Of a stretch of DNA of 43,469 nucleotides, positions 15,917 to 36,592 are shown piece by piece. This DNA is from a virus. The notes under the pieces were generated by a model. It had not been told where the DNA came from and made no database searches. It saw only the letters and a program-made list of their open reading frames with translations. The stretch's first letter is position 1. The number at the start of each line of letters is the position of its first letter. The position numbers were made by a program, and so were the translations under genes. The stretch lies in IMG/VR virus record IMGVR_UViG_3300043411_000968, positions 1 through 43,469 of that record. One strand, given 5' to 3'.

Positions 15917-16327
15917 ATGACTAAAAAAAGAAAAGTAACAAATAATAAAAGTTGGGTGGTTTCAAAGCTAGAAGGAAAAGAAAATGCGTTTCTTTACTCC
16001 TCATGTTTTCTAGGTTTTGATGCTGGGGAAACTGTTAAAGTTGATAGCGGTCATACGTTTGAAGCTGAGTTAAAAGTATCTGAGATGCTGTTATATCAAG
16101 AAACAGAAGAAGAATGTGACAAACCTGTTCCACTAGGAGAAAAGAAACTTCTATTAACAGACAGCCAAGGGAATGAACATCATGTGTTCTTAACTGACAT
16201 TCCAGAGTTTTTAACAGCAGTTCCAGAAATAAAACATGGAGTTGTTAGAGGTACTTGGGGATTCAAGTATGATCCAAAGAATGAAACATATGGACTAAGA
16301 TATGTTGGAAAGATGAAAGGTGATTGA
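15917..16327 (+). CDS. Unknown protein upstream of UvsX
   Basis: This 136-residue protein with a basic N-terminus and a likely beta-rich body is not assigned to a family. The ATG at 15917 is preferred over a TTG that lies in the terminator stem. The stop at 16325-16327 lies just before the UvsX ATG, and the UvsX ribosome-binding site is inside its last codons, so the two are likely translated together. Between SSB and UvsX, a replication or recombination accessory role is plausible but unproven. Confidence 0.6.
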   Translation: MTKKRKVTNNKSWVVSKLEGKENAFLYSSCFLGFDAGETVKVDSGHTFEAELKVSEMLLYQETEEECDKPVPLGEKKLLLTDSQGNEHHVFLTDIPEFLTAVPEIKHGVVRGTWGFKYDPKNETYGLRYVGKMKGD

Positions 16328-16329
16328 TT

Positions 16330-18126
16330 ATGGCAAGACCAAAGAAACAACTACAACCAACTCAAGAAGTAAACATTACATTAAAAAGTGATGGTATTTC
16401 TATGCCTTCAGATATGAAAGATTTTTCAAAAGACTTAATAAAAGATCTGAACAAAGAACTAGGTTCAGCAGTGATGTTTAATCTTGGTGATGGCAATGCT
16501 CCTACTGTTGTTCATAGGTGGGTAAGTACAGGTTCAAAACAACTGGACTATATCATAGGAAACATCCCAACAATCGGTGGTGGTTTACCAGAAGGAAGAA
16601 TCATTGAACTACAAGGTCCTACGGGGTGTCACGGAAAAGGTGACAAAGTTTTGATGTATGATGGTTCTGTAAAAAACATAGAAGATGTTCTGGTAGGAGA
16701 CAAATTAATTGGACCTGACTCTGAACCTAGAACTGTTCTCTCTTTACACAGAGGCAAAGATTCAATGTTTGAATACAAACCAACAAGATATGGAAAAACA
16801 TATCATGTAACTGGAAACCATACACTTGTTTTTAACAAAGGTGGAAAACAAATTCAAGAGATAGTAAATGAGTGGATAAAACATAGCAAAGGATATCAAG
16901 ATTCTTGCACTGTTGTTAAATCAAAAGAAATTACGTTTAATAACAACAAAAAAGAAAAAATTATTCCACCTTATATTCTTGGATTGTTATTAGGTGACGG
17001 TTATCTAAATGACCGAAGAATAGAACTAACAACCGCAGATCAAGAAATAGAACAAGAATATACAAGTTTTATTAATAGTCTTGGTTATAAGATTTCTGTT
17101 CATCCAAAAAAGGATAACAAAGCCAAAGGATTGTATCATATAACAGGTACAAAAAACAATCTTCCAATTAGTTCAACTAATCAAGATAAAGATGTTTTAA
17201 GATCAGAACTAACCAGATTAGGATTGTTGAACACTAAATCAGGGAACAAATTTATTCCTGTTGATTATAAAATTTCTTCTTCAAAAGATAGATTAGAACT
17301 TTTAGCAGGATTGATTGATACAGATGGTTATTCAACTAAAACAAACTATGAGTACACTAGCAAATCATTAACTCTAGTTGAAGATGTTTTATTTGTTCTT
17401 AGAAGCGTAGGATTACGTGCTTCTATTCCGTCAATAAAAATTATTAATGGTGAAAACTACTATAGAATAATAATAGGTGGAGATGAACTAGATCAAATTC
17501 CATGTAGACTTCCACGTAAACAAATTAAAGAACATAAAATTGATAAAAAATCAAACAGTTCTAGATTTAGTTTAAAACACATAGGTGATGGTGTGGATTA
17601 TTATGGAATTACGGTTGATAAAGATAATTTATATCTTGGTGAAGATTTTACTGTTATAAAAAACTGCGGTAAAAGCCATATTGCAGCATTAGCAGCAAAA
17701 AACTGTCAGTCAATGGGAGGTTTAGTTGTTTATGTTGACACAGAGAACGCTACTTCACCAGAAAACCTTGCAAGACTAGGAGTTGATGTAAAGAAAAACT
17801 TTGCTTTTGCTCAGTGTTCCTGTACAGAAGATGTATTCAAGATCATTGAATCAACTATCCTTAAAGCAAGACAAATAACCGCAGATATTCCTATCTTGGT
17901 TGTTTGGGATTCAGTAGCTAATACTTCACCAAAAGCAGAACTTGAAGGAGATTATGATCAAAACACTATTGGTCTTCAAGCTAGAGTTCTTGGTAAAGGT
18001 TTCAGAAAGATCACAAACCTGATAGGAAACCAACATGTTATTTTGCTTGCCCTGCAACAACAGCGCGAGAAAATCGGGTGTGTGAGTCCAGAAACAATAG
18101 TTGAATATCAACAAGGAGGTAACTAA
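16330..18126 (+). CDS. uvsX: UvsX/RecA-family recombinase, N-terminal precursor with one full intein and a 15-residue split-intein N-fragment
   Basis: UvsX forms filaments on ssDNA and drives strand exchange and recombination-dependent replication. Of the 598 residues, 1-99 and 446-583 are host protein (exteins). Residues 100-445 are an intein inserted within Walker A: GPTG is followed by the intein Cys, and CGKS resumes after it. Downstream the recombinase shows VVYVDTEN, ILVVWDS (Walker B) and ALQQQREKIG. After REKIG comes CVSPETIVEYQQGGN and a TAA stop. These 15 residues are the start of a second intein completed by the next gene. An in-frame SD, AAGGTGAT, precedes the ATG at 16330. After both splicing events UvsX would be about 420 residues, close to T4 UvsX (391). 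Confidence 0.9.
   Translation: MARPKKQLQPTQEVNITLKSDGISMPSDMKDFSKDLIKDLNKELGSAVMFNLGDGNAPTVVHRWVSTGSKQLDYIIGNIPTIGGGLPEGRIIELQGPTGCHGKGDKVLMYDGSVKNIEDVLVGDKLIGPDSEPRTVLSLHRGKDSMFEYKPTRYGKTYHVTGNHTLVFNKGGKQIQEIVNEWIKHSKGYQDSCTVVKSKEITFNNNKKEKIIPPYILGLLLGDGYLNDRRIELTTADQEIEQEYTSFINSLGYKISVHPKKDNKAKGLYHITGTKNNLPISSTNQDKDVLRSELTRLGLLNTKSGNKFIPVDYKISSSKDRLELLAGLIDTDGYSTKTNYEYTSKSLTLVEDVLFVLRSVGLRASIPSIKIINGENYYRIIIGGDELDQIPCRLPRKQIKEHKIDKKSNSSRFSLKHIGDGVDYYGITVDKDNLYLGEDFTVIKNCGKSHIAALAAKNCQSMGGLVVYVDTENATSPENLARLGVDVKKNFAFAQCSCTEDVFKIIESTILKARQITADIPILVVWDSVANTSPKAELEGDYDQNTIGLQARVLGKGFRKITNLIGNQHVILLALQQQREKIGCVSPETIVEYQQGGN
16627..17664 (+). mobile_element. Contiguous LAGLIDADG intein in UvsX Walker A
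   Basis: The intein covers residues 100-445 of the UvsX N-half (346 aa). It starts with Cys and ends KN followed by extein Cys. Block A is CHGKGDKVLMYDG, block B is YHVTGNHTLVF, and two DOD endonuclease motifs read ILGLLLGDGYL and LLAGLIDTDGY. The C-terminal block contains YYGITVDKDNLYL. Lys replaces the usual penultimate His, which is tolerated in some inteins. Insertion splits the ATP-binding loop, so the recombinase should be inactive until splicing. Confidence 0.93.
18079..18123 (+). other. Split-intein N-fragment in UvsX, 15 residues
   Basis: The segment CVSPETIVEYQQGGN begins exactly where REKIG should continue to TIYGDP in the recombinase. It carries the nucleophilic Cys and a block-A-like pattern and ends at a TAA. 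The rest of the intein is encoded from the ATG two codons later in the same frame. Known split inteins usually have far longer N-fragments, although ultrashort ones have been described. Confidence 0.85.
18114..18119 (+). promoter_or_regulatory. AGGAGG ribosome-binding site for UvsX C-half
   Basis: AGGAGG lies within the codons for the Gly-Gly of the 15-residue N-fragment and ends exactly 10 nt before the ATG at 18130. It is the strongest Shine-Dalgarno sequence in the replication region. It supports genuine reinitiation rather than a nonsense mutation or sequencing error. Confidence 0.8.
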
Positions 18127-18129
18127 ACT

Positions 18130-18564
18130 ATGCAAACAGCTACAGTAAAACAGATGTTCAAGGACATGGGTTATGAATTTGAAATCATGCCCATAGGAGT
18201 ATTCCAGGATGTTTCAGACAAACAGTTTAAGATTAAAACACTGGATAGTTCTGGAACAGAAGTTTGGAAACTAATAACCAAGATTGTTAGAAAACCATCT
18301 GCGTTAAAAATGGAAGTCAGAACTACCAACAATAAACTGTTCTGTTCTCCAGATCATAAAGTCTTGGTAAAAAACAATCAAACAAATGCTTCTTTCTATG
18401 AAGAGATAGCAGTGTTACTAGGGAATGAATCTTCATTTAAAATAAGATCAAAACAAGGATGGGAAGAATTTTCTATTATTCAACATAAAGACAATCTTCC
18501 AATTGCAGATTTTGAAGTTGAAGAAGAACATTCTTACCTAAGTGATGGTTTAATGTCACATAAC
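18130..18564 (+). other. Split-intein C-fragment in UvsX, 145 residues
   Basis: The C-fragment contains splicing block B (SPDHKVLV) and blocks F and G ending HN before extein Thr. No endonuclease domain is present. With the 15-residue N-fragment it makes a mini-intein of about 160 residues. The split lies before block B, much nearer the N-terminus than in classical DnaE-type split inteins. Confidence 0.9.
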
Positions 18565-19116
18565 ACAATTTATGGTGATCCCACAACTGTACCAGGAGGA
18601 AAAGCACTTCCTTACAATGCAAGCATAAGAATCAAACTTGGTGGAGGAGCACAGATCAAGAAAACTGTTGATGGTGAAGAAAGAGTTATAGGAGTTTCAG
18701 TAACAGCTAACATCATCAAAAACAGAATGTCTGCACCTTTTAGGAAAATTGATTTTGAAATACATTTTGGTAAAGGGATAAGAGAACATGAACAAGTGTT
18801 TGATTATCTCAGAACTTGGTGTGACAAACATCAAGATACTCCAGCTAAGTTAGGTGATGTTAAAATAACAATTTCTGGAACAGGAGCTTGGAAAGAACTG
18901 AACTTATCAAACATAGTAACAGGAGAGGTATTAGATACAGTTAAGTTTTATAAAGCTGACTTTGCTAACATCTTATACAATCCTAAGTATAAAAAAGAGA
19001 TGACAGCTTTGATGGACGCTGCTTACCTATGGACTTCTGATGAAGAAGAACACCTAACTCTTGGTGAAGTATTACCAGAAGAAGCTATTGAAGATCCCCT
19101 AACGATTTCAACTTAG
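18130..19116 (+). CDS. uvsX: UvsX C-terminal precursor with split-intein C-fragment
   Basis: Of 328 residues, 1-145 are the intein C-fragment and 146-328 the C-terminal extein. Block B reads FCSPDHKVLV. Block F/G reads ADFEVEEEHSYLSDG and ends MSHN followed by Thr. The extein continues TIYGDPTTVPGGKALPYNAS, the expected RecA/UvsX loop after REKIG, and ends with an acidic tail. Trans-splicing with the upstream 15-residue fragment would leave a REKIG-TIYGDP junction. The frame is the same as the upstream gene, with TAA-ACT-ATG between them. Read-through of the TAA would give a contiguous 162-residue intein instead. Confidence 0.92.
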   Translation: MQTATVKQMFKDMGYEFEIMPIGVFQDVSDKQFKIKTLDSSGTEVWKLITKIVRKPSALKMEVRTTNNKLFCSPDHKVLVKNNQTNASFYEEIAVLLGNESSFKIRSKQGWEEFSIIQHKDNLPIADFEVEEEHSYLSDGLMSHNTIYGDPTTVPGGKALPYNASIRIKLGGGAQIKKTVDGEERVIGVSVTANIIKNRMSAPFRKIDFEIHFGKGIREHEQVFDYLRTWCDKHQDTPAKLGDVKITISGTGAWKELNLSNIVTGEVLDTVKFYKADFANILYNPKYKKEMTALMDAAYLWTSDEEEHLTLGEVLPEEAIEDPLTIST

Positions 19117-22929: not shown

Positions 22930-23927
22930 TGGGTCTTGTTAACATCCGCAACAATTACAAGCCGTTCATATACGGGAAATGTCACGATTTCTGGCTTAAG
23001 CAACAACAAGCTCACTGGCTTCCAACAGAAGTACAGATGGGACCTGATATTCAAGACTGGAAACTAAACCTGTCAGAAACAGAAAAACAAGTCATAGCTG
23101 GTATTCTTAAAGGATTCATCCAGACAGAACTCATAGTAAATGACTACTGGCAACAAGTATCAAGATGGTTTCCTCATCCTGAGATATCAATGATGGCTTC
23201 AACATTTAGTTCTGTTGAATCAATTCATACTGTTGCCTATGCTCACTTAAACGACACTCTTGGCATAGAAGACTATGATGCTTTCTTAACAGAACCAACA
23301 GCAAAAGCAAAGATTGACCGTTTAGTATTTGAAGGAACACCTCAGTTAACCAACCTTACATCTCCAGAACAACTTGGAAACATTGCTAGAAGTTTAGCGG
23401 TGTTTTCAGGTTTTACAGAAGGAGTCAGTTTGTTTTCTAGTTTTGCTGTATTGTTTAATTTCAGCAGGTTTAATAAACTTAAAGGAGTTGGACAGATAAT
23501 CAGTTGGAGTATTCTTGATGAATCTTTACATTCAGAAGCAGGTTGTTGGTTGTTTAGAGAACTCATCAAAGAACATCCTGAACTATGGACAGATGAACTA
23601 AAAAAACAAATCTATGATGCCGCCAGAATAACGATTGAAATAGAAGACGCTTTTATTGATAAAGTATTTGATTCTGGTGAAGTTGAAGGAATAACTCCCA
23701 AAGAAGTAAAAACATTCATCAGACACAGGGCTAATGTCAAACTAGGAGAACTGATGTGTAAAACAAACTGGAAGAACCTAGATCAAGAAGCACTAAAGAA
23801 CATGAGTTGGTTTGATACCTTGTCACTTGGAGTATCACAACAAGATTTCTTTGCTGGACGTGAAACAGGTTATAGTAAAGGCAGTATAGATTTTTCAATG
23901 GAAAAAGTGTTTGGAGAACAACAATGA
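22929..23927 (+). CDS. nrdB: Ribonucleotide reductase small subunit (class I, NrdB-like)
   Basis: The 332-residue subunit houses the diiron-tyrosyl radical that starts nucleotide reduction in NrdA. Visible ligands include ESIH, the following Tyr four residues later (HTVAY, the E. coli Tyr122 position), and DESLH. The first metal ligand, Asp84 in E. coli, aligns with Glu in IQTELIV by eye. The GTG start at 22929 overlaps the HNH stop. A later ATG would delete conserved N-terminal sequence. The TGA overlaps the nrdA ATG (ATGATC), so both subunits are co-translated. It is not interrupted by an intein. Confidence 0.94.
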   Translation: MGLVNIRNNYKPFIYGKCHDFWLKQQQAHWLPTEVQMGPDIQDWKLNLSETEKQVIAGILKGFIQTELIVNDYWQQVSRWFPHPEISMMASTFSSVESIHTVAYAHLNDTLGIEDYDAFLTEPTAKAKIDRLVFEGTPQLTNLTSPEQLGNIARSLAVFSGFTEGVSLFSSFAVLFNFSRFNKLKGVGQIISWSILDESLHSEAGCWLFRELIKEHPELWTDELKKQIYDAARITIEIEDAFIDKVFDSGEVEGITPKEVKTFIRHRANVKLGELMCKTNWKNLDQEALKNMSWFDTLSLGVSQQDFFAGRETGYSKGSIDFSMEKVFGEQQ

Positions 23928-26239
23928 TCGTTACGTTAGAATGGTTAAAATCAGTAGGAGAAGCTCCTGAATGGTGTACGGATGAAAGTTATAAAATACT
24001 CTGTGGAGGATATTTGTTGGAAGATGAAACTCCTAAACAGATGTATCAGAGAATATCTTATGCTTCTGCTAAAAGATTAAACAAACCAGAGTTGGGAGAA
24101 CAGTTTTTTAACCTGTTCTGGAAAAACTGGTTAGGTCCAGCATCACCTGTTTGTTCAAACATGGGAACTGATAGAGGATTACCAATCAGTTGTTTAACGG
24201 GTGACACTTGGGTAAATACTGAAACAGGGGGCAAACAAATTAAAGATATTGAAATTGGTGATTTGGTTCTTACCCATGAAGGAAGATATAGAAGAGTTAC
24301 AAATAAATCTTTTAGGATGTCTGAAAATGATATTTATGAACTTCAGGTTAAAACTAGAACTACAAAAATAAAAATAACAGGAAACCATCCAGTTTTAACT
24401 AATTTAGGCTGGATAAGAGTTGATGAACTTGACAGATCTAAACATTGGATTGCAGTTAACAAACAAATTGAAACAATAGAGGAAGGTTATATAATAGATT
24501 TATCAACTCATTGCCAATATAAAACAAAAGAAATTAATGGGAAGTTATATAAATCACAAGAAACAAAAGAAACGAAACCCTCAAAACAATTAAAGAATGG
24601 AATTGTTTCTTATTATGCCTCCCCTAACCGTTTTATAGAATTCAATGAGGAAGTTGCTTGGGCTATAGGATTATGGTTTGCTGAAGGAAGTAGATCTATA
24701 AATAACAAAAAAATGGCAAATGGAATTAGAATAACTGTTAGCCACAAAGAAGAAGAATTTGCTAAACGTTGGATTGAAATATTTCAAAAGTATTTTAATT
24801 TAAATGGGAACTATTACCTTTCTGAAGTTGTTAGAAACAATAAAAAAAATAGATGGATTTCTGCTAATATTAATGGTAATATAATTGGCGAGTGGTTTTC
24901 AAGAGAATTTGGAGTGGGTTGTAAAAACAAAACATTGCCAAAATGGTTGTTAAATTCTCCTAAATCTGTTTTAAAGGCATTTTTACGCGGTGTTTTAGAT
25001 GGGGATGGCTCAAAATATAAAACGACAAGTACAGAAAAAATCACTCTTGCTAACCCAGAATTATTGCTAGGAATCTATAATATTTGTTTGAAACTGGGAT
25101 TAGCAGTTTCAATGCAAATGGAATCAAAGAGTGGAAAGTTATCAAAACAAAGATTTGTCTACTCTCTTAATATTTTTGAAAGTAATCTTTTGGGTAAACA
25201 AATTCACAAATCAAACATTGGAATCCAATTTGGAAAAAATCTTTATTGCCCAATAATGAATTTGAAACATATTCCAGATCATAATGAAAATGTTTATGAT
25301 ATTACAGTAGAAGATGATCATTCTTTCTCTGTTTGTGGGGTAGTAGTACATAATTGTTTTGGAGTCTGTGTCCCTGATAGTGTTAATGGTATCATGAGTT
25401 CAATGCATGAACTTGGGATGATGTCAAAATATGGTGGAGGGGTTGCCCTGCACTATAATAAAGTTAGAGGAAGAGGAGCAAAGATAAAAGGAAACGGATA
25501 CTCAGATGGAGTTGTTCCGTTTATAAAAATTCAAGATTCAACTACAGTTGGAATATCTCAAGGAGGTACTAGGAGAGGAGCCTCGGCAGGTTATCTTGAT
25601 TTAGATCAAACAGATACTCCAGAATTCTTAAAAATAAGAAAACCTCAAGGTGATCCTAACAGACAATGTTTGAACATTCACCAAGCTGTTTGTATCACTG
25701 ATGAATTCATGAACAAAGTTAAAGAAGGTGATCTTGAGTCTAGAAAACTCTGGTTAGAAATTCTTAAAACAAGATTTGAAACAGGTGAACCATATATTTT
25801 CTTTTCTGATAATGTAAACAACCAAAATCCTGAATCCTATAAAAACCTTGGGTTTAAAGTCATAGGAAGCAATATTTGCACAGAAATTGCACTTAAAAGC
25901 GACGAGGAGCATAGTTTTGTTTGTTGTTTATCTTCTATGAATCTATCAACTTGGGAACAGTGGAAAGATACAAATGCTGTTCAACTAGCTACTTGGTTTC
26001 TTGATGGTGTAATGGAAGAGTTTATTGCTAAAGCAGATACCATTCCAGGTTTTGAAAGATCTGTTAAATTTGCTAAGAAGTCTAGAGCTCTTGGTTTAGG
26101 TTGTGTAGCTAAAGGAAGTAAAATTGAAGTTATTGATACAGTAGAAATTAACGGTAAAAACTATCTTTTAGAGGATGATATTGTTGTTGAAAACAAAACT
26201 TTCAAAGTTAGAGAAATTATAAATCAAATTAAATTCTGA
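23924..26239 (+). CDS. nrdA: Ribonucleotide reductase large subunit, N-terminal precursor with full intein and split-intein N-fragment
   Basis: NrdA reduces ribonucleotides to deoxyribonucleotides using the NrdB radical. Of 771 residues, 1-89 and 478-726 are extein, 90-477 a contiguous intein and 727-771 the start of a split intein. The extein resumes CFGVCVPDSVNGIM after the first intein, placing it before a conserved Cys, equivalent to E. coli Cys225. Further on, ICTEIAL and CCLSSMNLS match the active-site NxCxE and Cys462 regions. The second insertion follows RALGLG, where TMGFHTLLQ should continue. The N-terminal extein shows no recognisable ATP-cone. The ATG has GGAG seven bases upstream. 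Confidence 0.93.
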   Translation: MIVTLEWLKSVGEAPEWCTDESYKILCGGYLLEDETPKQMYQRISYASAKRLNKPELGEQFFNLFWKNWLGPASPVCSNMGTDRGLPISCLTGDTWVNTETGGKQIKDIEIGDLVLTHEGRYRRVTNKSFRMSENDIYELQVKTRTTKIKITGNHPVLTNLGWIRVDELDRSKHWIAVNKQIETIEEGYIIDLSTHCQYKTKEINGKLYKSQETKETKPSKQLKNGIVSYYASPNRFIEFNEEVAWAIGLWFAEGSRSINNKKMANGIRITVSHKEEEFAKRWIEIFQKYFNLNGNYYLSEVVRNNKKNRWISANINGNIIGEWFSREFGVGCKNKTLPKWLLNSPKSVLKAFLRGVLDGDGSKYKTTSTEKITLANPELLLGIYNICLKLGLAVSMQMESKSGKLSKQRFVYSLNIFESNLLGKQIHKSNIGIQFGKNLYCPIMNLKHIPDHNENVYDITVEDDHSFSVCGVVVHNCFGVCVPDSVNGIMSSMHELGMMSKYGGGVALHYNKVRGRGAKIKGNGYSDGVVPFIKIQDSTTVGISQGGTRRGASAGYLDLDQTDTPEFLKIRKPQGDPNRQCLNIHQAVCITDEFMNKVKEGDLESRKLWLEILKTRFETGEPYIFFSDNVNNQNPESYKNLGFKVIGSNICTEIALKSDEEHSFVCCLSSMNLSTWEQWKDTNAVQLATWFLDGVMEEFIAKADTIPGFERSVKFAKKSRALGLGCVAKGSKIEVIDTVEINGKNYLLEDDIVVENKTFKVREIINQIKF
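24191..25354 (+). mobile_element. Contiguous LAGLIDADG intein in NrdA
   Basis: Residues 90-477 of the precursor (388 aa) form a full intein. It starts CLTGDTWVNTETG, and block B is TGNHPVLTN. Endonuclease motifs are AIGLWFAEGSR and FLRGVLDGDGS. Blocks F/G read VYDITVEDDHSFSV and VVVHN, followed by extein Cys. It interrupts GLPIS-CFGVCVPDS immediately before the conserved Cys. Confidence 0.95.
26102..26236 (+). other. Split-intein N-fragment in NrdA, 45 residues
   Basis: The fragment begins CVAKGSKIEVIDTVEING after RALGLG and stops 45 residues later at TGA. It has a block-A-like start, but no block B, which is on the C-fragment. The partner is encoded 1,074 bp downstream, beyond the GIY-YIG gene. 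Confidence 0.88.
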
Positions 26240-26279
26240 CTTGGATTGGTAATCTTTGGGTTTCATGATAATTATTTGG

Positions 26280-27317
26280 ATGAAAAAATATTTTATATAT
26301 GAGATTAAAGATTTAAAAACAGATATGTTTTACATAGGGAGTCATCATGGCACAGTTAATGATGGTTACATATGTTCAAGCACATATTTGAAACCAATTT
26401 ATAACTCAAGACCAGAAACTTTTGTAAAAAAAATATTGCTAGAATACGAAGAAAATACAATCACAAGAGAACAAATATTAATATTAGAAAGTGAAAAAAT
26501 CAAAGAATATATTGAAAATTTTGGAAATGATAAAATTTATAATAGGTCTTACAACATATACGGAAATAAAATTTTTAATTCAAAAGGATTAATAAAAATT
26601 AACAAAGATGGCAAAGTAAAGATTATTAAACCAGAGAATTTAGATGACTATAAATTATTGGGTTGGAGTTTAGGTTCAAACTACTCTACCACTGCTGGAA
26701 AAATAGCAATTAACAATGGTAAAAACAATAAATTTATAAAACAAGAGGAACTGGAAAAATATCTCAATGAAAGTTGGAAACAGGGAACTGTTTCTTTTAA
26801 ACCTAGATATTGGAAAAGCACTTTAGAAAAAATAGCAATTAACAATGGTAAAAACAATAAATTTATAAAACAAGAAGAATTAGAGAAATACCTGGAACAA
26901 GATTGGGTTAAAGGGAGTTTTCAAACCAACAAAAGAACTGAATGGATAAAGTCCAATCTTGATTGTTCAACAAAAATTAATAAAGATGGTAAAAGTTTGA
27001 GAATAAAACAAGAGGAACTGGAAAAATATCTCAATGAAAGTTGGAAACAGGGAAATGGATATTCTACCACTGCTGGAAAAATAGCAATTAACAATGGTAA
27101 AAACAATAAATTTATAAAACAAGAGGAACTGGAAAAATACTCGGAACAGGGTTGGATTAAAGGATTCAAAATGTCCGATAAATTACACGGAAAGGGTTGT
27201 AAAAGTTCCGTTTTTGGTAAAATAAAAATCAATGACGGAAAAATAGAAAAATATGCTAATAAAAATGATCTAAATCATTTTTTGATTAATGGTTGGAAAG
27301 TTGGAAGAATAAAATGA
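26280..27317 (+). CDS. GIY-YIG homing endonuclease between split-intein halves
   Basis: The first 60 residues match GIY-YIG nucleases: YFIYEIKD, FYIGSHHG and DGYICSS. The following 240 residues hold about six copies of a repeat, consensus KI-x-IN-x-G with ELEKYL and W-x-G, likely DNA-binding modules like those found with NUMOD-type homing endonucleases. It lies between the halves of nrdA, overlapping the ATG of the second half by four bases. The ATG at 26280 is favoured over upstream TTG and ATG codons because GATAAT ends 7 nt before it and the domain begins right there. It probably mobilises the split-intein locus. Confidence 0.9.
   Translation: MKKYFIYEIKDLKTDMFYIGSHHGTVNDGYICSSTYLKPIYNSRPETFVKKILLEYEENTITREQILILESEKIKEYIENFGNDKIYNRSYNIYGNKIFNSKGLIKINKDGKVKIIKPENLDDYKLLGWSLGSNYSTTAGKIAINNGKNNKFIKQEELEKYLNESWKQGTVSFKPRYWKSTLEKIAINNGKNNKFIKQEELEKYLEQDWVKGSFQTNKRTEWIKSNLDCSTKINKDGKSLRIKQEELEKYLNESWKQGNGYSTTAGKIAINNGKNNKFIKQEELEKYSEQGWIKGFKMSDKLHGKGCKSSVFGKIKINDGKIEKYANKNDLNHFLINGWKVGRIK
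26587..27317 (+). repeat. About six tandem repeats in GIY-YIG endonuclease
   Basis: Repeats of about 35-48 codons share KIAINNGKNNKFIKQEELEK or close variants. Blocks starting at 26685, about 26827 and 27063 are nearly identical in DNA, and an identical run of about 46 bp occurs at 26741 and at 27008. High DNA identity implies recent duplication or gene conversion. Confidence 0.85.
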
Positions 27318-27754
27318 TAAAAAAATTTGATGTTCAAAATTTGAAAATTGTGTTAAAAACAAAAGAAATCAAAATTGAAGAAGCAATACCTGGGCAAATG
27401 GTTTTAGCTTATGATATAAACAATAAAAAAAAATGTTTTAGACAAATAACAGAAACACATAAACCAATAGTAAAAAAAGAAAATCAAATTAAAATTCAAA
27501 CTAAAAGTGGCACTGAAATTATTACTTCTAAATGGCATCCAACCTTGGTTTCCAAGGTTAAAAACATGAAATATATCAGGGCGGATCAAATAAAAATAAA
27601 AGATAGTTTGGTTGGTGACTCAAATACAAATGACCATGTTGTCAGCATAGATTTAAATCCAAATATTAATGAAGAATTTATAGATTTAACCGTTGAAGAA
27701 CACCATAATTATTTCACAAAGACAACAGGTACTAAAAAAGTTGTTATTCATAAC
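27314..27754 (+). other. Split-intein C-fragment in NrdA, 147 residues
   Basis: Carries an early segment with IPGQMVLAYD, block B (SKWHPTLV) and C-terminal blocks ending VVIHN-Thr. Together with the 45-residue N-fragment it makes an intein of about 192 residues without an internal endonuclease domain. The free-standing GIY-YIG gene takes the place the endonuclease would have inside a full intein. Confidence 0.88.
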
Positions 27755-28450
27755 ACAATGGGTTTTCATACTCTTCTTCAAGAAAAACAGATACCTTTTG
27801 ACAGTTTTGATAGTTTCAGACTAAACAATCAAATTTTTAGACACATAGACATAGAAACTCAAAAAGCTACTCAAGATCTTGCAAAAGAATATGGTGAACC
27901 TGAATGGTGCAAAGGATTAGGAATAAGAAATACTCACAGAATAGCACTAGCACCAACAGTTACAAACGCTATCATATCTGGAAACGTAAGTCCTTCTGTT
28001 GAACCTTGGACCGCTAATGCTTTTGCACGTAAAACAGCAAAAGGTACATTCATCCACAGAAACAAGACACTAGAAAAACTACTTGAGTCAAAAGGACAGA
28101 ACACAGAACAAGTCTGGAACTCAATAGTTGCTAAAGAAGGTAGTGTCCAGCATTTAACCTGTCTAACAAAAGAAGAGAAAGAAGTATTCCTAACTGCTAG
28201 AGAAATTAACCAATTTGTTATAGTAAAACTAGCCGGACAAAGACAACAATACATTGATCAAGCACAAAGTATTAACCTGTTCTTCCCTAGTAATGTTGAT
28301 CCAAAATACTTCCATGAAGTTCACATGTTAGCTTGGGAACAACAACTTAAAACACTTTACTACTGTAGAACAGGCAGTGTTCTAAAAGGTGAAGCTGGAA
28401 CAAAAGAATATAAGAGAGAAGCAGAGGAGTGTAAAGCTTGTGAAGGCTGA
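27314..28450 (+). CDS. nrdA: Ribonucleotide reductase large subunit, C-terminal precursor with split-intein C-fragment
   Basis: Of 378 residues, 1-147 are intein C-fragment and 148-378 extein. Block B is SKWHPTLV, and block F/G is DLTVEEHHNYF and VVIHN before extein Thr. The extein restarts TMGFHTLLQ, then NTHRIALAPT and GNVSPSVEPW, and ends with CKACEG, the mobile CxxC pair that re-reduces the active site. Trans-splicing would give NrdA of about 569 residues. The ATG overlaps the TGA of the GIY-YIG gene, with GGAAG upstream. Confidence 0.94.
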   Translation: MIKKFDVQNLKIVLKTKEIKIEEAIPGQMVLAYDINNKKKCFRQITETHKPIVKKENQIKIQTKSGTEIITSKWHPTLVSKVKNMKYIRADQIKIKDSLVGDSNTNDHVVSIDLNPNINEEFIDLTVEEHHNYFTKTTGTKKVVIHNTMGFHTLLQEKQIPFDSFDSFRLNNQIFRHIDIETQKATQDLAKEYGEPEWCKGLGIRNTHRIALAPTVTNAIISGNVSPSVEPWTANAFARKTAKGTFIHRNKTLEKLLESKGQNTEQVWNSIVAKEGSVQHLTCLTKEEKEVFLTAREINQFVIVKLAGQRQQYIDQAQSINLFFPSNVDPKYFHEVHMLAWEQQLKTLYYCRTGSVLKGEAGTKEYKREAEECKACEG

Positions 28451-29411: not shown

Positions 29412-32029
<2,618 letters not shown>

Positions 32030-33339: not shown

Positions 33340-33954
33340 ATGAGATTAAAACGTTGGCTGTTTGAACAAAAGTATTTCCAAGGTAACACACCTGTTGTTC
33401 TTAACTCTGGAATATCAGAAGAACAGGTTGTTGCTGTTTATGAACTTATCCAACAAGCTTATGGTCATGTAGGAATGCATGGAAACATTCCTGACATGCA
33501 TAGTTTATCAAAATATGACTATGTTGTTTTAACAGACACAGATGATGATGATAAACCAAACGTAGCAGTGTTGGGAGAAACCATGAGAAATGGATCTACT
33601 AAACTCAGTGTGTTTGCTACAGACGGTAGTTCAGGTGCTAAAGCTTCACTGTTTGACATCTTAAAACTTACTCTCCAGAGAGAAGATACTTGGGCTGAGA
33701 TACCAAGACAGTTTGCTAGTTTCTTACACTCAAGAGGAGTACCAATGATTGAAGATCAAACAACAGTTATGTTACTTCTTGGTAAGAGGATATTCAAAGG
33801 TGGATTTGACTGGCATGGTAATCATAAAAAAGATAATGGTATTGGATACTATACAAGAAACTACTTTGGTACAGATGATACAAGAGCAGTCATGGGAACC
33901 ATATCACCTGAACTAGTTGAAAAGATAAAAAGGTTTGTTGAGAACCATGGTTAA
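33340..33954 (+). CDS. Conserved unknown phage protein
   Basis: At 204 residues, the sequence has a central DYVVLTDTDDDDKPN acidic motif, an ATDGSSGAKASLFDILK motif and a C-terminal GYYTRNYFGTDDTRAVMG segment. I recognise this combination as a recurring uncharacterised phage protein that loosely recalls acetyltransferase-like folds, but function is not assigned. The ATG at 33340 is preferred because TAGTTA lies 5 nt upstream and the intergenic space to the divergent gene is only 20 bp. Its stop overlaps the start of the next gene by 8 nt. Confidence 0.6.
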   Translation: MRLKRWLFEQKYFQGNTPVVLNSGISEEQVVAVYELIQQAYGHVGMHGNIPDMHSLSKYDYVVLTDTDDDDKPNVAVLGETMRNGSTKLSVFATDGSSGAKASLFDILKLTLQREDTWAEIPRQFASFLHSRGVPMIEDQTTVMLLLGKRIFKGGFDWHGNHKKDNGIGYYTRNYFGTDDTRAVMGTISPELVEKIKRFVENHG

Positions 33955-35101
33955 CCTGAAACAGTTTATATTTGAAGTATCCAAAGAACAACTGGAACAA
34001 GAGTTTAATCAAACAGTTGAACGTCTTTGGAAAACTGGTGATCCAAACGTGCTCATACACTTCTCAGATCTACCAACAACGTTTGGTATCAATCCTAAAT
34101 CAACCTGGATGACACCTCTTGGAATCTATGGTTATCCAATAGCATATTTCTCATTAAATGACATCAAAACTCTCAATGTCCCTTATGCAGCAGAAAGAAA
34201 ATATGTCTGGTTCTTCAAGTTTAAAAACCCTGACAAAATTTGGATATTAAACAAGAAACCAGAATTATCAAACCATATAAAACAACAGTTACTTAAATAT
34301 TATGGAAAAGAATTAACAGAAGATTATCTTGTATTTTCTGGTGTTTTAGATGAAAAAGAATTTGATGCTTGGTTTTTAAACTTTAGTATTACAGATAAAG
34401 ATTTATTTTATTTAACCAATAGAATAACTGGAAACAAACCTGCTAGGTGGACAAAGTTTTTCATTGAAGCTGGAATAGATGGAGTTATAGATGAAGGAGA
34501 AGGTATCATCCACAAGAATGAACCAACTCAGGGTTTTGCAGTAAACAGTAAAGCTATTGAAGTTTTAGGGGTGTTTGAGAATCCTGGTAGTAAAAATGAT
34601 CACTTATCAGCTATTTTACGTTGGTTAGACACAGGAATATCTTCTGGTATTTCCAATAAAACAATTCAATTTTTAATTAAATCCACTCAGATAACTCAAG
34701 AACTAAAGCAGAAGATATTAGAAAAAATATCAAAAGATTATCTGAGTGGATTTAGCAGATTCCAAGAAATGATTGAAATTGATTATCTTGAGAATCGTAA
34801 AGGTGGTTATAAGAAACTTGGATGGTTGAGACAACCTTTTTTTGATGCTGCTAAACATTGGTTAATAAATGTAAAAAACATAGAAAAACTAATTTATAAT
34901 GTACCAGAAGAGTTTGTTGGTGATGAATCACTACTTTTATCTAAAAATTTTCAATACACCGTTAAAAGAATAATAAAAGAAATTGAACTAATGGATCTTG
35001 ATAAAGGAGTTCCCGGTGATTTTGACCCTGAGTATCTTCCTCCTCATGATAAAAAAGTATATCAACTCCTAAGACCTCTCTTAGATAAGTTTCCCAAATA
35101 A
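33947..35101 (+). CDS. Possible ADP-ribosyltransferase-like protein, copy 1
   Basis: The 384-residue protein has an N-terminal domain with PNVLIHFSDL, TPLGIYGYPI and YVWFFKFK, and a following segment ARWTKFFIEAGIDGVIDEG then GIIHKNEPTQGFAVN. The H, Y and Q positions are consistent with the catalytic triad of ADP-ribosyltransferase-like toxin folds. This is pattern matching by eye and needs structure prediction. The last 120 residues are helical. The ATG at 33947 overlaps the upstream stop by 8 nt. It is paralogous to the gene at 35260 and, at its N-terminus, to the minus-strand gene at 32030. Confidence 0.6.
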   Translation: MVNLKQFIFEVSKEQLEQEFNQTVERLWKTGDPNVLIHFSDLPTTFGINPKSTWMTPLGIYGYPIAYFSLNDIKTLNVPYAAERKYVWFFKFKNPDKIWILNKKPELSNHIKQQLLKYYGKELTEDYLVFSGVLDEKEFDAWFLNFSITDKDLFYLTNRITGNKPARWTKFFIEAGIDGVIDEGEGIIHKNEPTQGFAVNSKAIEVLGVFENPGSKNDHLSAILRWLDTGISSGISNKTIQFLIKSTQITQELKQKILEKISKDYLSGFSRFQEMIEIDYLENRKGGYKKLGWLRQPFFDAAKHWLINVKNIEKLIYNVPEEFVGDESLLLSKNFQYTVKRIIKEIELMDLDKGVPGDFDPEYLPPHDKKVYQLLRPLLDKFPK

Positions 35102-35111
35102 CTAATCTTAT

Positions 35112-35273
35112 ATGAAACCACTATTGTCCAGATTGATATTCACTGAGGAAGAAGAAACTCTTGAGGAGTTTAATGCTGTTGGTGCTGGAGGAATGTCAGG
35201 ATTTAATACTCCTTTGTTAGTTAAGGGTAAGAAACAGAAGAAATTTATGGTTAAAAATCATGGAACTAAATGA
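35112..35273 (+). CDS. Small satellite protein, copy 1 (53 aa)
   Basis: The frame reads MKPLLSRLIFTEEEETLEEF, then NAVGAGGMSGFNTPLL and a Lys-rich end. A near-identical protein is encoded at 36440. Conservation of frame and sequence between the copies shows it is a real gene. The VGAGGMSGF motif appears as a short tail in some phage proteins, but no function is known. It overlaps the next gene by 14 nt. Confidence 0.75.
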   Translation: MKPLLSRLIFTEEEETLEEFNAVGAGGMSGFNTPLLVKGKKQKKFMVKNHGTK

Positions 35274-36429
35274 GTTTATATTTGAGGCTTCTAAAGAACA
35301 AACACAACAAGAGTTTGATCAATTTGTTGAAAAACTATGGGTTACTGGTGATCCAAACATACTAATGCATTTTTCAAGTTATTCTGATGTATTTGGTATA
35401 AATCCTAAATCAACTTATCTAACACCTCTTGGAATCTATGGTTATCCAATATCACATTTCTCACTTGAAGATATTAAAAAATTTAATCTCCCATTTGCAA
35501 CAGATAGACCTTATGTCTGGTTCTTCAAGTTTAAAAACCCTGACAAAATTTGGATATTAAACAAGAAACCAGAGATATCAGAAAAAATAAAAGAATTCTT
35601 AAAGAAAGTATACCTAAAACAACTAACAGAAATCATAGTTGAAAAATGGGGTGATCCAGATCCAAACTATTTTGATCAATATTTTAAACGCCTTATTCCA
35701 GATGATAAAGAACTGTTTTATTTGACTAACACACTAACAGAAAACAAACCCGCTAGATGGACTAAATTATTTATTGATACTGGAATAGATGGAGTTATAG
35801 ATGAAGGAGAAGGGATTATACACCAACATGAACCAATCCAAGGATTTGCTGTTAACAACAGAGTTATTCAGGTATTAAAAATATTTAACAATCCCAAAAC
35901 CAAAAAATCAAAAATAGCTGATATAAAAGATTGGGTTGAAAGTGGAGCTGATAGTTTATACAGGAGAGCAATTCCGTTTTTGATTCATTCAAGAGAAATA
36001 ACTCCTGAAATGAAACAGAAAATAACAGAAAACTTGTTTCGTAACCAACGTATATATGCTATTTTATATGAAGCAATCTATGAAGATTATCTGTTAGGAT
36101 CAAATGCTTACAAAAAACTTGGTTGGTTGAAAGATCCATTTTTTAACGCAACGAGAAACTGGTTAAAGAAAACAAATTCAAATGATAGTTTTTTAAGAAT
36201 AAATAAAATTTTTCACTCTGTTATAAACAATGTTCCTGATGAGTTTGTTAATGACGAAACATTATTACAGAATCATAATTTTCAAATTATTGTTAAAAGA
36301 ATAATAAAAGAAATTGAATATGTAAACACAGATTTTGGAGCTTTTTTTGAACCAGATGAAATTATAAATGAATACGACAAACACACGTATAAACTTCTAA
36401 GACCTCTCTTAGATAAGTTTCCCAAATAA
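35260..36429 (+). CDS. Possible ADP-ribosyltransferase-like protein, copy 2
   Basis: This 389-residue paralogue of the gene at 33947 has the same N-terminal features (NILMHFSSY, TPLGIYGYPI, YVWFFKFKNPDK, DGVIDEGEGIIHQHEPIQGF) and the same C-terminal end, LLRPLLDKFPK. The middle (about residues 120-150 and 260-330) has diverged or gained residues. Start is ATG at 35260 inside the previous satellite gene. The conserved H, Y and Q positions suggest both copies keep the same activity, if any. Confidence 0.6.
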   Translation: MELNEFIFEASKEQTQQEFDQFVEKLWVTGDPNILMHFSSYSDVFGINPKSTYLTPLGIYGYPISHFSLEDIKKFNLPFATDRPYVWFFKFKNPDKIWILNKKPEISEKIKEFLKKVYLKQLTEIIVEKWGDPDPNYFDQYFKRLIPDDKELFYLTNTLTENKPARWTKLFIDTGIDGVIDEGEGIIHQHEPIQGFAVNNRVIQVLKIFNNPKTKKSKIADIKDWVESGADSLYRRAIPFLIHSREITPEMKQKITENLFRNQRIYAILYEAIYEDYLLGSNAYKKLGWLKDPFFNATRNWLKKTNSNDSFLRINKIFHSVINNVPDEFVNDETLLQNHNFQIIVKRIIKEIEYVNTDFGAFFEPDEIINEYDKHTYKLLRPLLDKFPK

Positions 36430-36439
36430 CTAATCTTAT

Positions 36440-36592
36440 ATGAAACCACTATTGTCCAGATTGATATTCACTGAAGAAGAAACTCTAGAAGAGTTTAATG
36501 CTGTTGGTGCTGGAGGAATGTCAGGATTTAACATTCCTTTGTTAGTTAAGGGTAAGAAACAGAAGAAGTTTACAGTTAAGAAACAACCATGA
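36440..36592 (+). CDS. Small satellite protein, copy 2 (50 aa)
   Basis: This is a near-identical copy of the 53-residue protein at 35112, starting MKPLLSRLIFTEEETLEEF, with one Glu missing, Ile for Thr in the middle and a different tail. It starts 10 bp after the paralogous large gene, with the same upstream sequence as copy 1. The ATG of the kinase-fold gene overlaps its TGA. Confidence 0.75.
   Translation: MKPLLSRLIFTEEETLEEFNAVGAGGMSGFNIPLLVKGKKQKKFTVKKQP

What the first reader, a model, noticed from the sequence alone, without database searches (positions are those of the whole stretch)
18079..18564. Naturally split intein in UvsX with an N-fragment of only 15 residues
Seen: recombinase sequence stops at REKIG, continues with CVSPETIVEYQQGGN and TAA, and two codons later the same frame restarts at an ATG with a block-B and C-terminal intein sequence, then TIYGDP. 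AGGAGG lies inside the N-fragment, 10 nt before that ATG. Known: classical split inteins such as DnaE have N-fragments of about 100 residues; a few atypical phage ones are much shorter, including ultrashort types I recall from environmental UvsX genes. Inference: this is a functional trans-splicing intein near the lower size limit. Its separation from a contiguous mini-intein by one stop codon looks like a very young or minimal split.
Basis: partly seen in the sequence, partly recalled or inferred. Interest (0 to 1): 0.93.

Follow-up and report, generated by a model that had tools for sequence, protein, structure and literature searches.

The report
Ultrashort split intein in phage UvsX
A phage recombinase gene is broken into two neighbouring genes whose protein halves are probably rejoined by a self-splicing element (an intein) whose first half is only 15 residues long, and its relatives in other phages show the same element whole, split around a DNA-cutting gene, or split around that gene's remains.

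Summary
All class-1 splicing residues are present. Read through the stop, it is predicted to fold as an intein (pLDDT 96; best PDB match VidaL), with the break in the loop after an early strand. At the same UvsX site I found 20 distinct phage alleles in four states: 7 contiguous mini-inteins, 9 split with a Vsr-like endonuclease gene between the halves, 2 split around a truncated endonuclease relic, and 2 split with nothing between (the window, and L048, where the halves are out of frame). Their IntN halves are 13-18 residues. Trees reject a single origin for the contiguous alleles and for the two bare splits. IntC starts carry Shine-Dalgarno sites (12 of 13; 2.4 expected). So this is a real and probably trans-splicing intein; error or readthrough is unlikely as the whole story. 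It is not a size record (PolB16 OarG has 15; L008 and L013 have 13), and it is more likely a split that lost its endonuclease than a brand-new split. Splicing itself was not tested.

The parts
16324..18126 (+). UvsX N-precursor ORF: N-extein, contiguous intein 1, rest of N-extein, IntN, TAA (TTG start listed; ATG at 16330 is the likelier start)
16627..17664 (+). Contiguous 346-aa LAGLIDADG intein in the Walker A motif (GPTG^CGKS)
   Evidence: Pfam Hom_end_hint, LAGLIDADG_3; junctions
18079..18123 (+). IntN, 15 aa, CVSPETIVEYQQGGN
   Evidence: homologous IntN in 12 split relatives
18113..18120 (+). Shine-Dalgarno AAGGAGGT inside IntN, 9 nt before the IntC ATG
18124..18126 (+). TAA stop of the N-precursor
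18130..18564 (+). IntC, 145 aa, with block B SPDH, block F Asp and terminal His-Asn
18565..19116 (+). UvsX C-extein beginning with the +1 Thr (TIYGDP...), then the stop codon
   Evidence: Pfam RecA

Best explanation
A naturally split, cysteine-dependent class-1 intein inserted in UvsX at REKIG^T. Two adjacent cistrons make (1) UvsX-N carrying the 15-residue IntN and (2) IntC fused to UvsX-C. The second cistron starts from its own Shine-Dalgarno inside IntN, probably helped by ribosomes that terminate at the TAA 3 nt before the ATG. IntN docks onto the nearly complete IntC; Cys1, Thr+1 and the terminal Asn carry out splicing and full-length UvsX is released, while the Walker A intein excises in cis. 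Historically the allele most likely descends from a split intein with a Vsr-like homing endonuclease gene between its halves that was later deleted. Shown: sequence, catalytic residues, predicted fold, break position, a family with four gene arrangements, independence of the two bare splits. Inferred: mode of translation, trans-splicing, direction of evolution.
For: Exact anatomy. Catalytic positions conserved over 20 alleles. Fused model pLDDT 96.3 with the break between strands 7-12 and 18-22; 57 PDB matches at E<=0.001, the listed ones almost all inteins or related HINT domains, best VidaL. Same site split with 13-18-aa IntN in 12 other alleles. In L048 the halves are in different frames with a 29-nt gap, so simple stop readthrough cannot join them. 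IntC starts have Shine-Dalgarno matches of 4 or more bases in 12 of 13 split alleles against 2.4 expected. Endonuclease relics in L014 (63 aa matched, E 9e-28) and L050 lie in exactly this gap. All nine intact endonuclease ORFs overlap the IntC start, suggesting one shared arrangement. The two bare splits are not one clade (AU p 9e-6).
Against: No splicing assay. The halves are in frame, so readthrough would also give a plausible intein. Forks around the window are weak and its nearest intein relatives include both a split allele with a relic (L014) and a contiguous one (L022). The window genome shows no general Shine-Dalgarno use, so the strength of this site in its host is unsure. No endonuclease remnant is left in the window.
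Confidence: 0.78

Rival explanations
1. The intein is effectively contiguous: the TAA is a sequencing or assembly error, or is read through, and splicing is in cis.
For: Both ORFs are in the same frame and the read-through form folds confidently; contiguous relatives exist.
Against: A perfect Shine-Dalgarno and ATG directly follow, unneeded in a contiguous gene. 12 relatives are truly split at the same place, one bare and out of frame. TAA ends 14 of 34 ORFs in the window, so reassignment is unlikely.
Confidence: 0.1
2. Young split: a contiguous mini-intein gained a stop and a restart directly, with no endonuclease stage; it still works by trans-splicing.
For: Contiguous alleles L022 and L010 are 41-46% identical to the window's IntC and fall in the same weak group; only 3 nt separate the halves.
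Against: Needs a stop, a Shine-Dalgarno and a start together at the very place where relatives carry an endonuclease gene or its relic. The split alleles L014 (relic) and L032 (endonuclease) are 50-52% identical to the window.
Confidence: 0.25
3. A decayed, non-splicing gene: UvsX is inactive or the halves act without ligation.
For: Splicing cannot be tested here; splitting can impair activity.
Against: All catalytic residues and both extein halves are intact; the only break is the stop/restart; RecA domains are recognised on both sides.
Confidence: 0.07

Closest known systems
VidaL split intein (PDB 6vgv)
   Same: Best fold match (E 2e-7, TM 0.70/0.78); naturally split after the second strand with a short IntN (PMC13014065); cysteine-dependent.
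   Different: Weak in sequence (profile E 0.004). VidaL's host gene and gene map could not be checked.
PolB16 OarG split intein (PDB 8cpo, 8cpn)
   Same: IntN of 15 aa, the shortest characterised as of 2023 (PMC10189870); same class of break.
   Different: Serine nucleophiles, DNA polymerase host, IntC of 168 aa; here Cys1/Thr+1, UvsX, 145 aa.
AceL-TerL and GOS-TerL atypical split inteins
   Same: Natural N-terminal atypical splits with short IntN (25 and 37 aa, PMC11766414).
   Different: Split after the first helix (PMC13014065), terminase host.
'Fractured genes' of Dassa et al. 2009 (cited in PMC3229294; paper not held)
   Same: As I recall it, a host gene and a split intein around a free-standing Vsr-like endonuclease; relatives such as L032 and L041 look like this.
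   Different: The window has no endonuclease in the gap, and the break is after an early strand rather than at the usual endonuclease insertion point.

Membership tests
Class-1 intein | Cys/Ser at position 1 | tested here: met
   Cys1 at 18079; Cys1 in all 20 alleles
Class-1 intein | Block B His | tested here: met
   SPDH; Ser and His invariant in 20 alleles
Class-1 intein | Terminal His-Asn and +1 Cys/Ser/Thr | tested here: met
   SHN^T
Class-1 intein | HINT fold | tested here: met
   AlphaFold2 pLDDT 96.3 and Foldseek to inteins, for the form with TAA read as Gln
Class-1 intein | Splicing activity | not testable with these tools
   needs expression
Atypical (short IntN) natural split intein | Halves encoded by separate ORFs, IntN about 15-37 aa | tested here: met
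   15 aa, TAA, then ATG with a Shine-Dalgarno; readthrough not formally excluded
Atypical (short IntN) natural split intein | Break after strand 2 or after helix 1 | tested here: met
   Break between strands 7-12 and 18-22 of the model
Atypical (short IntN) natural split intein | Trans-splicing | not testable with these tools
   needs co-expression
Fractured gene (split intein around a free-standing endonuclease) | Endonuclease gene between the halves | tested here: not met
   Gap is 3 nt; no endonuclease match in the window (best E 0.65). Met in nine relatives

The most novel reading that the evidence does not exclude
Splitting at this site is a reversible, endonuclease-driven cycle: a Vsr-like homing endonuclease gene breaks the intein in an early loop, the split pair spreads by homing, the endonuclease decays (L014, L050) and is deleted (window, L048), and in-frame deletions can re-fuse the halves into contiguous mini-inteins (for example L034, which sits among split alleles in the tree). 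Some contiguous mini-inteins would then descend from split ones.
Probability: 0.4. Interest if true: 0.78.

Novelty: new variant of a known kind. Interest (0 to 1): 0.62.

Why it matters
How split inteins arise and why they persist is an open question. One insertion site now shows contiguous, split-with-endonuclease, split-with-relic and bare-split alleles, so the steps can be tested by expression and by tree. The 13-18-residue N-halves are short enough for peptide synthesis and could serve as protein-ligation tools. The bare bicistron, with 3 nt between stop and restart, is the tightest split gene in this set.

Tried and rejected
Single-sequence scans with the window's IntC or C-extein found no relatives; degenerate DNA patterns across the junctions worked. 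GTDB genomes gave no relative of the intein, and the host could not be inferred from thymidylate synthase. A relaxed pattern gave only unrelated proteins. Hits L017, L018, L021, L024, L028, L035, L036, L038, L040, L055-L057 and L060 are an unrelated non-UvsX protein family and were dropped; L006 and L007 are chance matches; L058 (IntN-like end, no IntC found) and L059 were not followed. Reassigned TAA was considered and rejected. 15 aa as a record was rejected from the literature. Dassa et al. 2009 and the GOS-TerL paper were not held, so their gene maps could not be compared.

Full report
Observation. The window is a whole 43,469-base virus record. UvsX is in two ORFs in the same frame, 16324-18126 and 18130-19116. 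The first ends ..LQQQREKIG CVSPETIVEYQQGGN TAA; the second begins, after one codon (ACT), at ATG and reads 145 residues of intein to ..LSDGLMSHN, then TIYGDP... Both flanks match RecA/UvsX and the middle matches Pfam's intein splicing domain below its curated cut-off.

What it is. I searched IMG/VR for the N-junction written as degenerate DNA. The first pattern gave L008, a split UvsX with a 13-residue IntN, an endonuclease-like gene, and an IntC 36% identical to the window's. Further searches brought the set to 20 distinct alleles at the same site, the window included. Parsing them gave four gene arrangements: contiguous mini-intein of 155-169 residues (L010, L016, L019, L022, L034, L051, L054); split with an endonuclease gene of roughly 280-350 residues between the halves (L008, L013, L023, L026, L027, L032, L041, L046, L049; L029, L039 and L043 are cut off); split with a truncated endonuclease (L014, L050); and split with nothing between (the window with a 3-nt gap, L048 with 29 nt). 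The endonucleases share an E..GDYWH-type motif, with weak Pfam matches to Vsr, DUF559 and MTES_1575, and NUMOD3 in L008; the endonuclease label therefore rests on weak matches and the shared motif. The L014 relic aligns only with residues 236-298 of the 302-residue L032 protein (E 9e-28), so most of the enzyme is gone.

Fold and chemistry. In the 20-row alignment the block B Ser and His, the block F Asp and the terminal Ser-His-Asn are invariant, and every allele has Cys1. The window intein with the stop read as Gln is predicted at pLDDT 96.3; strands at 7-12 and 18-22 flank the break. The best solved match is VidaL, an ultrashort split intein; by sequence profile the closest are gp41-1, BIL2 domains and Spl DnaX, with VidaL weak. 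The break is in the position that PMC13014065 gives for VidaL and PolB16, directly after the second strand.

Translation. Within 4-13 nt of the IntC start, 12 of 13 split alleles have at least four bases of a Shine-Dalgarno; 2.4 are expected from other ATGs of the same loci. The window has the longest, AAGGAGGT, the only such site before a plus-strand ATG in the window. Unlike its relatives, the window phage shows no Shine-Dalgarno use at its other gene starts. Inference: the site either arrived with the intein from a phage that uses such sites, or is needed for starting inside a coding region; stop-restart coupling over 3 nt would help either way. L048, with halves out of frame, shows that a bare split exists without a simple readthrough route, although its C-extein looks damaged in this contig.

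Evolution. Intein and extein trees have many weak forks, but AU tests reject one clade for the contiguous alleles (p 5e-7) and for the two bare splits (p 9e-6). A well-supported set of five inteins (100/99) holds contiguous, bare and endonuclease-bearing alleles together. L049 (split with endonuclease) and L016 (contiguous) have 97% identical UvsX exteins but 46% identical inteins, which points to replacement of inteins by transfer. The endonucleases are homologous, in the same place and orientation, and all nine overlap the IntC start, so one origin of that state followed by decay and deletion is the simplest account. That makes the window more probably a late stage than a new split, but its nearest relatives include both kinds and the tree does not settle it.

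Comparison with the known. An IntN of 15 residues is already characterised in PolB16 OarG (PMC10189870), and natural atypical split inteins are quoted at 15-37 residues (PMC13014065). No paper in the library joins the words split intein and UvsX, and the seven that hold intein and UvsX do not, as far as read, describe this element. The arrangement in relatives resembles the 'fractured genes' of Dassa et al. 2009, known to me from citation and memory only. The window differs by lacking the endonuclease. It works like an atypical split intein and meets the sequence and predicted-fold criteria; activity is untested.

Noticed in passing
window 23924-28450: NrdA (ribonucleotide reductase large subunit) is also broken: a contiguous LAGLIDADG intein (24191-25354), then GLG^CVAKGSKIEV..IINQIKF* (IntN of 45 aa from 26102), an ORF that looks GIY-YIG by eye (26256-27317), and an IntC of 147 aa from ATG 27314 to ^TMGFHTLLQ at 27755. 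This phage thus has two split and two contiguous inteins.
   Followed up: partly
window 26682-27163: The ORF between the NrdA halves carries several near-identical internal repeats (KIAINNGKNNKFIKQEELEKYLE; 81-98% DNA identity).
   Followed up: no
window 33935-36583: Tandem duplicated gene pair, 33935-35101 and 35260-36429 (55% aa identity), each followed by a copy of a 199-bp repeat (93%).
   Followed up: no
window, whole: No excess of Shine-Dalgarno sites at gene starts, whereas the contigs of all its UvsX-intein relatives have them. Host unknown.
   Followed up: partly
window 30499-31674: PurA-like adenylosuccinate synthetase, just below NCBIfam's PurA cut-offs and far from the PurZ model.
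   Followed up: no
L016 and L023/L033/L042/L047/L052, just after the +1 Thr: A further intein starts a few residues downstream in UvsX (TMYGDPS^CVSPDTKIKVRRRNV* in L016, TMYGDPT^CVDLDTEIEVEF.. in L023), so some phages carry two inteins within ten residues, at least one again with a very short N-half.
   Followed up: no
L048, reverse strand, about 1420-1455: The C-extein reading frame ends soon after TTTPGG in this contig, so L048's UvsX may be damaged, misassembled or interrupted again.
   Followed up: no
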